A DNA stretch of 64,000 nt from Taxillus chinensis. Lineage: Eukaryota; Streptophyta; Magnoliopsida; Santalales; Loranthaceae. Where the stretch lies: NCBI GenBank assembly GCA_023512835.1, contig CM042090.1:11625343-11689342 (forward strand), read 5' to 3'. A program made the position numbers and the translations under genes. The notes beneath the pieces are model-generated. The model was not told the origin of the DNA and ran no database searches. It saw only the letters and a list, made by a program, of their open reading frames with translations. Shown here piece after piece: positions 43,116 to 45,369 of the stretch. Numbering within the stretch: the first letter of the stretch is position 1; each line of letters begins with the position of its first letter.

Positions 43116-43220
43116 GTCGTACATTAAGAGAGGAAATTAATTGGCTGATATGATGACTCATGCAATTAGTAGTGCTTATTTTCACCAACCTTGTCAACAC
43201 CACCACTGAGAAGTGACCGT

Positions 43221-43532
43221 CTACCGGCCGGCTGATATCGAGGCGTCCTTAGGCGTGATGGGGTCCCCATTCCATCCATCCCTAATTAACTGCTCTAACT
43301 CACGAATAGCTACACGTTTAACCCGATAATCCGAAGAACGACTGACCTTCCTACTTCGACACCGGAGTTGCCTTATCTTCTCCCCTTCGACTCGACAGAA
43401 ATCCTTTACTGGACCCTGAGTTACAGTCTCCACTGTCTTCCACTGGTATAACTGATCCGACAAAAATCGGTCTACGCACATCTGCACAAACTGCCCGTAA
43501 GAACTTGGATAATTTTCTAAGGAGTATAGCAT
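43221..43532 (-). CDS. Unrecognised virion-sense frame of the geminivirus-like insert (103 codons)
   Basis: Open minus-strand frame, read away from the origin hairpin as virion-sense genes are. The middle is basic (KIRQLRCRSRKVSRSS, RVKRVAIRELEQLIRDGW) and the start has aromatic and Cys residues (SSYGQFVQMCVDRFL). Position and size fit a V2/movement-type protein, but no specific family could be recognised. It overlaps the 95-codon frame by about 180 bp, a common viral arrangement. It might instead be the truncated front of a longer protein. Confidence 0.4.
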   Translation of the reverse strand: MLYSLENYPSSYGQFVQMCVDRFLSDQLYQWKTVETVTQGPVKDFCRVEGEKIRQLRCRSRKVSRSSDYRVKRVAIRELEQLIRDGWNGDPITPKDASISAGR

Positions 43533-43638
43533 GATATATCACGAGAGTCAATTGTAAGCCCACAAAAAAACCAACTACCCACGCAATTAAATCGGGCCTC
43601 GCAAACTTTTCACACACACCCCTGCAATCCAAATTCAT
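43351..43638 (-). CDS. Unrecognised virion-sense frame with one membrane segment (95 codons)
   Basis: Starts about 320 bp from the origin hairpin on the virion-sense side. Residues about 17-42 (LIAWVVGFFVGLQLTLVIYH) form one hydrophobic segment followed by basic residues (LLRKLSKFLR), the usual look of small movement-type proteins with one membrane span in several geminivirus genera. The C-terminal part is Ser/Gly-rich. Assignment to a named family is not supported by sequence alone. Confidence 0.4.
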   Translation of the reverse strand: MNLDCRGVCEKFARPDLIAWVVGFFVGLQLTLVIYHAILLRKLSKFLRAVCADVRRPIFVGSVIPVEDSGDCNSGSSKGFLSSRRGEDKATPVSK

Positions 43639-43926
43639 TACGGGCTCGCCAGGACAACAAACGGAGGCCCATTAATAGAACATCCCACATGTTCCTTCCG
43701 GACAAAGGAATCATTAAGATATTATATCTTATTCCAAAGTTGCACCGTCCACCCTAAAATTCGGATCTTGTTCCACCACTACGAGCACGCTTTTTCATTA
43801 TTTAATGTAGTGCGGACCTCCGTGGCTTCAACAACACGCCACTGAGAAAACTTACATAATACGCCAGTAATAGGGACCACGCACCACTTGATGCACTACA
43901 TTGGTGGGCCCACGTTACCTAGGCAT

Positions 43927-43948
43927 TGCAAAACGACGTCGTTTTGCA
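43927..43948. promoter_or_regulatory. Perfect 22-bp palindrome containing acgacgtcgt
   Basis: An 11+11 bp perfect palindrome with no loop, centred on gacgtc (an ACGT-core motif of the bZIP type), 13 bp before the origin hairpin. The aaacgacgtcgttt core is known as an over-represented element in plant promoters; whether it came with the virus or the host is unknown. Confidence 0.7.
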
Positions 43949-43960
43949 TCAGATGAGGGA

Positions 43961-43996
43961 GTAGGTCATCCGGTAATATTATTCCGGATGACCTAC
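43961..43996 (-). promoter_or_regulatory. Geminivirus replication origin: stem-loop with intact nonanucleotide
   Basis: A perfect 13-bp stem (43961-43973 with 43984-43996) encloses a 10-nt loop. On the minus (virion-sense) strand the loop and first stem base contain TAATATTAC (43981-43973), the invariant nonanucleotide that Rep nicks to start rolling-circle replication. Both stem arms are still fully complementary. Confidence 0.95.
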
Positions 43997-44008
43997 ACGT
44001 GTCACGTG
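43996..44008. promoter_or_regulatory. Twin G-boxes between origin and Rep
   Basis: Two CACGTG hexamers (43996-44001 and 44003-44008) one base apart. G-boxes are known in geminivirus Rep promoters and bind host bZIP/bHLH factors. ggtgt words nearby (44008-44012, 44090-44094) could be Rep-binding iterons, which is inference. Confidence 0.6.
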
Positions 44009-44031
44009 GTGTACAGTCGAGCGGCTCTTAC

Positions 44032-44038
44032 TATAAAT
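44032..44038 (+). promoter_or_regulatory. TATA box of the Rep gene
   Basis: TATAAAT, 75 bp before the Rep ATG and on the Rep side of the origin hairpin, as in geminiviruses. Confidence 0.75.
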
Positions 44039-44112
44039 TCAACACCAAAACACCAAATCAACCAGGGACTTTTTGAGTGCTCCGACTGGTGTTCACCCCT
44101 TATTTACCAAAC

Positions 44113-45210
44113 ATGCCATCCGCCGGCCGATTTCGGGTAACTGCCCGGAATTTCTTCCTCACATACCCTCGTTGCTCTCTTTCTAAACACGAAGCACTCT
44201 CCCAATTGCAAAATATCCCGACTCCCGTCAATAAGAAATTCATTAAGGTTTGCAGGGAATTTCACGACAACGGGGAGCCACACATACATGCTCTCATCCA
44301 ATTTGAGGGCAAGTTTCAGTGTTACAATCAACGGATTTTTGATTTGGTCTCTCCACACCAATCAACCTCATTCCATTGTCACATCCAAGGTGCACGGTCA
44401 AGTTCCGATGTCAATGCGTACCTTGACAAAGATGGTGACACGATTCAACATGGTGAATTCCAGACCGACCGGCGATCTGCAAATGGCGGTAATCAATCTA
44501 ATAAAGACGTGTATGACGAGGCTTTAAGCACCGGGTCAAAAGAGTCGGCATTACAGATCATTCGAGATAAGGATCCAAGAACCTTTTTATTGCAATACCA
44601 CAATATTTCTTCTAACATCGACAGGATATTTGCTCCGCCACCGCCATTTTTATTCCAAAATGGCAAGACAATTCTTTTATTATTCCGGACGATCTAGAAC
44701 AATGGTTGGGTGATCAATTTGTTATGGATGCGTGCGCGAGACGATTTTCATAATGGATTTCGAAAGCGTATAGATATCGATCGCCCATTATCTGTAGTTA
44801 TTGAAGGTCCCAGTAGAACTGGGAAAACTGCGTCGGCTAGATCATTAGGACCACATAACTATCTATGTGGTCATCTTGATTTTAATCCACGTAGTTACTC
44901 AAATGACGTCGAATATAACGTCATCGATGACGTCGAACCCGCTTATTTAAAATTGAAGCATTGGAAACATCTGATAGGAGCACAAAAAGACTGGCAATCC
45001 AACTGCAAATATGGCCGACCAGTCCACATCAAAGGTGGGATCCCTTCAATCGTGCTCTGCAATCCAGGAGACGGGTCCAGCTACAAAGACTTCTTAGAGA
45101 AGCCTGAGAATGCATCTTTAAAAGACTGGACCGTCCAAAATGCTTGGTTCGTCTTTATCCAATCAGCACTTTATAACACCAACACCGAGGATCCACACGA
45201 ATCAACCTGA
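44113..45210 (+). pseudogene. Geminivirus replication initiator protein (Rep), frame-broken
   Basis: Rep nicks the origin and acts as an SF3 helicase in viral rolling-circle replication. The first frame (44113-44697, 194 codons) has motif I FFLTYPRC (14-21), motif II HIH (57-59), the geminivirus-specific GRS region (about 75-95) and motif III with the nicking Tyr103 (NAYLDKD). The second (ending 45210) carries the helicase: Walker A GPSRTGKT (44806-44829), Walker B VIDDV (44920-44934) and motif C IVLCNPG (45049-45069). Between them, about 44650-44760, reading shifts twice through a third frame that still looks coding, so at least two indels broke the gene; a stop sits at 44695-44697. Apart from this all catalytic motifs survive. 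A spliced RepA/Rep layout is an alternative, but the gap looks too short for a plant intron. Confidence 0.93.
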
Positions 45211-45369
45211 CTACAGAATTGCTCATCTCATACTACACGCATGGATATATGATATCTTTGTGCTAACTTAAGATGGAGAATTGAAAAAAATCCTCAATTA
45301 AATAGTTGTTATATATTTATAATTATGTATTTTTCTAAATAGGTTTATTTCTTAATTTAGGTAATCCTA

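What the first reader, a model, noticed from the sequence alone, without database searches (positions are those of the whole stretch)
43200..45235. Endogenous geminivirus-like element with near-complete Rep
A plant chromosome carries about 2 kb of geminivirus-type DNA in which all Rep catalytic motifs (nicking Tyr, HIH, GRS region, Walker A/B, motif C) survive. Only a short stretch at 44650-44760 breaks the frame. The good preservation suggests a fairly recent insertion or some constraint. The insert lacks a recognisable coat protein. Its lineage is not obvious from the sequence and may be unclassified.
Basis: partly seen in the sequence, partly recalled or inferred. Interest (0 to 1): 0.9.

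Follow-up and report, generated by a model that had tools for sequence, protein, structure and literature searches.

The report
Fossil geminivirus fragment, multi-copy family
A plant chromosome carries a broken piece of an old plant virus, one of dozens scattered through the genome, and together they point to an unsampled virus that kept on one DNA circle genes that many modern relatives split between two.

Summary
Window 43195-45247 is geminivirus-derived DNA in a plant chromosome; comparison with other copies fixes both junctions. It holds an intact-looking origin, V3- and V2-like frames, the first ~28 codons of a coat-protein-like frame, and a Rep in two pieces interrupted by a stop and an out-of-register stretch.

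It is not solitary: the Rep N-piece has 138 matches in the same 521-Mb genome. Longer copies carry REn (Gemini_AL3, E 7e-37) and a divergent coat-like frame, below Pfam's cut-off. A DNA-B-type movement protein (Gemini_BL1, E ~1e-35) lies within 5 kb of 25 of the 30 best Rep copies, in 16 about 2.2 kb away on the opposite strand (rows partly chosen by me). One head-to-tail pair is 4,188 bp apart.

Best reading: a decayed, doubly truncated fragment of a ~4.2-kb monopartite geminivirus lineage joining begomovirus-like Rep, C4 and REn to citlodavirus-like V2, V3, CP and MP. dN/dS between two subfamilies is 0.15. Endogenous geminiviruses are known; I found this gene combination in none of my searches. 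No tree could be built.

The parts
43195..45247 (.). Endogenous geminivirus-derived insert, truncated at both ends
   Evidence: Of 19 other loci, six continue past the left end and 16 past the right end, while the window switches to host DNA; GC change at both ends
43195..43279 (-). First ~28 codons of a coat-protein-like frame (V1), cut by the left junction
   Evidence: Stop-to-stop frame open for 225 and 220 codons to the locus end in L020 and L025, 99-209 codons in four other readings; first ATG two codons after the frame opens in four of six readings, as here; Gemini_coat 2.9e-6 to 1.6e-3 in five other loci, below the cut-off; the 39-codon window reading itself matched nothing
43221..43532 (-). 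V2-like ORF, 103 aa, no known family; the name goes by position
   Evidence: Two frames of at least 95 codons in 0 of 3000 shuffles (one such frame in 36 of 3000); 100% aa identity to L028; no Pfam match
43351..43638 (-). V3-like ORF, 95 aa, one hydrophobic stretch; the name goes by position
   Evidence: KD19 maximum 2.17 at residue 17; 99% aa identity to L028; no significant Pfam match
43961..43996 (-). Origin hairpin: 13-bp perfect stem, TAATATTAC at 43973-43981 on the virion (minus) strand
   Evidence: Of 49 perfect hairpins (arms >=12 bp) found in the window, the only one with stem GC of 0.4 or more, listed in two registers; DNA fold z -5.8; nonanucleotide
44007..44056 (-). Iteron-like array: two direct GGTGT copies, TATA box, one inverted copy
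   Evidence: Repeat listing; comparable motifs GGTGTC/GACACC around the TATA box in TYLCV (PMC12548392, passages)
44113..44697 (+). Rep N-terminal piece: endonuclease domain and start of central domain
   Evidence: Gemini_AL1 2.4e-51, AL1_M 2.1e-9; Rep chains 1l2m and 7vg8 at 3e-51 and 2e-49 (that they are begomoviral is recalled)
44288..44527 (+). C4-like frame inside Rep; its first ATG falls at about position 7 of the Pfam profile
   Evidence: Gemini_C4 E 4.6e-6, 26.9 bits against cut-off 29.1
44641..44790 (+). Rep break: stop at 44695 and a stretch taken to be out of register
   Evidence: Stops by frame, no GT from 44560 to 44704; indel counts against other copies
44758..45210 (+). Rep C-terminal piece: SF3 helicase motifs
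   Evidence: Walker A, Walker B and motif C; phytoplasma plasmid Reps E 1e-13
45240..45247 (+). First codons of REn (C3), cut by the right junction
   Evidence: In other copies the sequence continues as a 134-aa Gemini_AL3 protein, E 7.3e-37, 2.4e-36, 3.2e-34 in the three tested

Best explanation
The insert is most likely a non-functional fossil: one doubly truncated, decaying copy among dozens, from an ancient geminivirus lineage that integrated repeatedly into the germline of this plant's ancestors. The virus was probably a single circle of ~4.2 kb. Virion-sense order: V3, V2, CP, MP. Complementary-sense: Rep (unspliced), C4, REn. A TAATATTAC hairpin with iterons lay between them. It presumably replicated by Rep-driven rolling circle and moved with a DNA-B-type MP encoded on the same circle. 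Shown: gene content and recurring order at several loci, exact junctions, dispersal, low dN/dS between subfamilies. Inferred: circularity, unit size, unspliced Rep in the virus, integration by host end-joining, CpG decay through methylation, and silence of this copy.
For: Junctions and longer copies. 138 Rep-N matches on C1-C9. 1 kb of window host DNA on each side matches none of 19 other loci, so not a duplicated host segment. REn, CP-like (118, 128, 146) and MP (132, 142) in sister copies. MP on the opposite strand at +1.5 to +2.6 kb in 16 Rep-MP pairs against 3 on the same strand, and at -2.7 to -1.5 kb in 7 against 0. The two head-to-tail MP pairs measured lie 4,188 bp apart on C1 and 3,866 bp on C5, where the copy lacks 321 bp of the window element. 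dN/dS 0.15 between subfamilies. CpG transitions are 30 of 69 differences between window and subfamily A, pooled over ten rows. Rep frame uninterrupted for ~365 codons in 2 of 14 loci read in register, the window among the 14.
Against: All six coat stretches tested in five other loci score below Pfam's cut-off; the best solved-structure capsid match of one is not significant (E 1.8). Copies are rearranged (inverted and tandem pieces), so order could partly arise after integration. MP rows used for linkage were partly chosen by me. One MP of the C1 pair is decayed (58% identity with a stop), and the coat frame of that copy is broken (99 codons). No geminivirus genomes were available for a tree. 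dN/dS within subfamilies (0.29, 0.30) could also reflect constraint after integration. The window copy and four more of the 30 have no listed MP piece within 5 kb. TrAP was tested at few places.
Confidence: 0.8

Rival explanations
1. The ancestor was bipartite: Rep/REn/CP on DNA-A and MP on DNA-B, joined by recombination before or after integration.
For: DNA-B-type MP family; Olea europaea geminivirus has a virion-sense MP on DNA-B (PMC8000510, section 3.2); the C7:6.65-Mb array mixes Rep, CP and MP pieces.
Against: Same MP position and strand in 16 of the 30 best Rep copies, and spacing that fits one ~4.19-kb unit at two loci. On C1 a coat-like piece (to 51,706,998) is followed ~330 bp later by the MP frame on the same strand.
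Confidence: 0.15
2. The Rep break is an intron, so Rep is intact and spliced, as in citlodaviruses.
For: The break lies between the nuclease and helicase parts; one citlodavirus rep has a 99-nt intron (PMC11053556, passages).
Against: No GT from 44560 to 44704, so no GT-AG intron starting there can skip the stop at 44695; 2 of 14 loci read through in one frame.
Confidence: 0.02
3. The copy is kept by the host and makes a ~194-residue truncated Rep that could interfere with related viruses.
For: The intergenic region is kept; the N frame ends at the same codon (~195) in 5 of 14 loci, this one included; truncated Rep transgenes give strain-specific resistance (PMC8066563, passage).
Against: No expression data; changes against the three closest copies are 8 nonsynonymous to 4 synonymous, not clearly constrained; CpG decay suggests silencing.
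Confidence: 0.05
4. Contaminating episomal virus or misassembly.
For: None found; no reads were available to test it.
Against: The window lies inside a 58.5-Mb contig; host gene and host repeats on the two sides; many differently truncated copies.
Confidence: 0.01

Closest known systems
Yam EGV1/EGV2 (Dioscorea), PMC5014472
   Same: Endogenous elements with begomovirus-like Rep (59% to the nearest) and REn; hairpin with TAATATTAC in EGV1; no TrAP or coat gene found there
   Different: Longer copies here have a coat-like frame and a linked MP; an MP is not mentioned in the sections I read (3.2, 3.7)
Camellia Clade 3 EGV integron, 4.6 kb, PMC7758297
   Same: Single unit with CP, putative MP and Rep; many copies in the genome
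   Different: Rep is of repA/repB type, sister to CCDaV/MMDaV/CaCDaV; here Rep is begomovirus-like, apparently unspliced, with REn
Citlodaviruses (CCDaV, PCMoV, apiscitlodal virus), PMC5923463 and PMC11053556
   Same: Virion-sense CP, DNA-B-like MP, V2 and V3 on one enlarged circle
   Different: Six genes with RepA/Rep (spliced in apiscitlodal virus, potentially so in PCMoV) and no REn among them; Rep said to be nearest becurtoviruses
Olea europaea geminivirus, PMC8000510
   Same: Rep 58% to a begomovirus, divergent CP, REn, virion-sense MP, placed in no established genus by its authors
   Different: Bipartite, has AC2 and no AV2; here MP is linked to Rep and V2/V3-like frames are present
Macadamia EGE, PMC8626973
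   Same: Interrupted Rep, AC2, AC3, AC4 and AV1 with TAATATTAC
   Different: No MP or ~4.2-kb unit in the Results section that I read

Membership tests
Endogenous geminiviral elements | Geminivirus Rep homologue in nuclear DNA | tested here: met
   Gemini_AL1 2.4e-51; host junctions
Endogenous geminiviral elements | Spanned by reads or found at the same site in relatives | not testable with these tools
   No reads, no related plant genome available
Geminiviridae | TAATATTAC in a hairpin between diverging genes | tested here: met
   feature as in PMC5802298 (whole text)
Geminiviridae | Coat protein of geminivirus type | tested here: inconclusive
   Only ~28 codons here; sister loci 2.9e-6 to 1.6e-3, all below cut-off
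Begomovirus | Rep related to begomoviruses | tested here: met
   64% and 67% to two begomovirus Rep domains, 33% to a mastrevirus one (virus names of these chains recalled). BFVD: 54, 60, 60% in the three best begomovirus rows, 39-60% in shorter begomovirus fragments, 54% beet curly top virus, 32% MMDaV, 25% WDV (low-confidence model, identities only). Window reads FQTDRRSANGGNQSNKD against the consensus FQIDGRSARGGQQ(S/T)AND of four genera, 11 of 17 (PMC6669703, section 3.8)
Begomovirus | C4 and REn in complementary sense | tested here: met
   Gemini_C4 just below cut-off; Gemini_AL3 above it in three sister copies
Begomovirus | TrAP (C2) | tested here: inconclusive
   One candidate frame closes after 41 codons in 12 of 16 loci, and after 11, 21, 35 and 123 in the other four; no Pfam match for two readings; L028 lists no frame of 70 aa or more there but REn. 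No genome-wide TrAP search was made
Begomovirus | MP, where present, on DNA-B only | tested here: not met
   BL1-type MP within 5 kb of 25 of the 30 best Rep copies
Citlodavirus | CP, large DNA-B-like MP, V2, V3 in virion sense | tested here: inconclusive
   MP met; CP below cut-off (118, 128); V2/V3 by position only (122)
Citlodavirus | Spliced Rep/RepA | tested here: not met

The most novel reading that the evidence does not exclude
The family is the fossil of an unsampled, possibly extinct genus: a ~4.2-kb monopartite geminivirus that carried begomovirus-type Rep, C4 and REn together with the movement protein that bipartite begomoviruses keep on DNA-B. It would be a closer intermediate between one-circle and two-circle geminiviruses than the citlodaviruses, whose Rep is of another type.
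Probability: 0.5. Interest if true: 0.72.

Novelty: new variant of a known kind. Interest (0 to 1): 0.55.

Why it matters
How begomoviruses came to have two circles is, to my knowledge, open. PMC5923463 (passages) proposed that citlodaviruses resemble an intermediate, but their Rep is said to be nearest becurtoviruses (PMC11053556, passages). A fossil with begomovirus-type replication genes and a DNA-B-type movement gene on one circle would make that proposal testable by phylogenies of Rep, REn, CP and MP from the same loci, and the chromosomal copies offer dates.

Tried and rejected
Intron in Rep: rejected, no GT donor. Candidate C2/TrAP start at 45140: not supported, the frame closes after 41 codons in 12 of 16 copies. 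Solitary element: rejected. Mobile unit with fixed ends: considered when many alignments stopped at 43195 and 45247; rejected because other copies continue there. Target-site duplication: longest shared word near the ends 8 bp, within what shuffles give (made before the exact junctions were known). Single-sequence AlphaFold models were poor (pLDDT 46.9 and 44.2); the V2-like model gave nothing. Viral contigs gave no relative in two scans. Phages: no match. PHROGs and NCBIfam: nothing useful. Host species: not identified.

Limits of counts. One search read 20 loci at a fixed offset; six (L015, L019, L024, L025, L026, L028) were out of register, leaving 14, window included. One search used 11 rows of subfamily A (the window, three from L011) and 8 of B; L019, L024 and L026 do not cover the start and were left out; pairs are not independent. 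Subfamilies A and B were set by me from identity to the window (96.7-98.3% and 91.4-93.7%). One search used the top 30 of 138 Rep rows and 36 of 93 MP rows: 30 of the top 31 (one dropped by oversight), plus six weaker rows that I added because they lie beside a Rep copy, which favours linkage. The four MP loci were chosen, mainly for their long open frames. Only two head-to-tail MP pairs were measured.

Full report
What is in the window. The Rep N-piece (44107-44694, +) matches Gemini_AL1 at E 2.4e-51 and Gemini_AL1_M at 2.1e-9. The C-piece (44710-45207, +) matches no Pfam family above its cut-off, but phytoplasma plasmid Reps match at E 1e-13. Nuclease and helicase motifs survive; my GRS pattern failed there, and the region is judged from the alignment. 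Of 38 columns invariant in three reference Rep domains, 30 are kept; of 84 invariant in two of them, 66. Both pieces lie in one frame register, which has a stop at 44695. The stretch around it differs by 3 and 4 indel events from the two loci with an uninterrupted frame, against 0-1 in the longer N-piece and none in the C-piece of those loci; I therefore read it as shifted out of register and back. No GT occurs from 44560 to 44704, so an ordinary intron starting there cannot explain the break.

Rep is on the plus strand, so the virion strand is the minus strand, and on it TAATATTAC lies at 43973-43981 (the window has three more copies elsewhere) in a perfect 13-bp stem, the only G+C-rich one among 49 perfect hairpins found in 64 kb; its fold is 5.8 s.d. 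below shuffles. GGTGT iteron-like repeats flank the TATA box, comparable to TYLCV (PMC12548392, passages). Two overlapping minus-strand ORFs of 95 and 103 codons exceed chance (0 of 3000 shuffles). A C4-like frame scores just below the Pfam cut-off.

Where it sits. The window is C7:11625343-11689342 of a 520,938,286-base genome in 264 contigs. An SDH1 gene ends at ~40.28 kb (with recalled words; family and structure matches). Host repeats lie in both flanks. The insert is ~2.9 kb beyond SDH1.

A large family. The Rep N-piece gives 138 matches across C1-C9, several in clusters, including a ~1,045-bp tandem unit on C4 and a ~3.1-kb period on C7. Nineteen other fetched loci align at 91.4-98.3% over their longest match. 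Six of the 19 continue past 43195 and 16 past 45247, where the window turns to host DNA; the window's own host flanks match none of the 19. So this is a separate, doubly truncated copy.

What the longer copies carry. Past the right end: a 134-aa REn, Gemini_AL3 E 7.3e-37, 2.4e-36 and 3.2e-34 in the three tested. Past the left end: a coat-like frame, Gemini_coat E 2.9e-6 to 1.6e-3 in six stretches of five loci, all below the cut-off; of six readings two stay open to the locus end (225 and 220 codons) and four close after 99 to 209. An MP piece first met in L024 (E 2.8e-11) has 93 matches; four fetched loci have MP frames of 317, 317, 317 and 365 codons from the first ATG, Gemini_BL1 E 1e-35 to 2.6e-34. 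Among the 30 best Rep rows, 25 have an MP piece within 5 kb; 16 pairs lie at +1.5 to +2.6 kb on the opposite strand and 3 on the same; 7 at -2.7 to -1.5 kb, all opposite (selection stated in Tried and rejected). Five Rep copies, this window included, have none. Equal MP points are 4,188 bp apart on C1 and 3,866 on C5, where the copy lacks 321 bp. A C2 frame was not found at the place tested.

How it evolved. dN/dS is 0.15 between subfamilies, 0.29 within A, 0.30 within B and 0.39 for window against A. I read this as divergence mostly while replicating as viruses, followed by decay: 30 of 69 window-to-A differences are transitions at CpG. Zero internal stops in the Rep pieces bounds neutral divergence at about 0.064, i.e. 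up to ~19 My at 3.41e-9 per site and year, 3 to 169 My over the range of rates given in PMC3095596 (section read). Older copies exist: matches fall to 35% identity, several with many stops. In 2 of 14 loci read in register, window included, the Rep frame is uninterrupted for ~365 codons.

Against the literature. Endogenous geminiviral elements are well known (PMC7758297, abstract and three of four parts of the results; PMC5014472, abstract, sections 3.2 and 3.7; PMC8626973, abstract and Results; PMC3095596, abstract and one section). A monopartite circle with a DNA-B-like MP is known from citlodaviruses and proposed as an intermediate (PMC5923463 and PMC11053556, passages), but with RepA/Rep that is spliced or potentially so. 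OEGV has similar genes on two circles (PMC8000510, abstract, section 3.2 and Discussion). A Camellia unit of 4.6 kb has CP, MP and repA/repB (PMC7758297). In my ten searches I saw no description of begomovirus-like unspliced Rep, REn and such an MP on one unit; the library is open-access only and I read few papers, most in part. So: a known kind, with an apparently new gene combination.

Noticed in passing
C1:889,636-933,015: A ~43-kb cluster of Rep pieces at 35-96% identity with mixed stops, apparently several ages or lineages of insertion together.
   Followed up: no
L011 (C4:41,484,022-41,487,561): Head-to-tail units of ~1,045 bp, window-equivalent 43769-44814, holding the origin and the Rep N-part; resembles an integrated array of a subgenomic circle.
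   Followed up: partly
L019, L024, L026 (C7:6.648-6.658 Mb): ~3.1-kb tandem period in which Rep lacks its first codons and abuts a coat-like piece, with an MP piece in each of the three loci.
   Followed up: partly
window 44641-44790: In most other copies the Rep break region carries more insertions and deletions, relative to the window, than the longer N-piece beside it.
   Followed up: partly
window 41460-42470 and 42842-43118: Host repeats: the first has dozens of matches genome-wide, the second a copy at 62282-62567.
   Followed up: no
window 30.6-40.28 kb (+): Multi-exon succinate dehydrogenase flavoprotein gene.
   Followed up: partly
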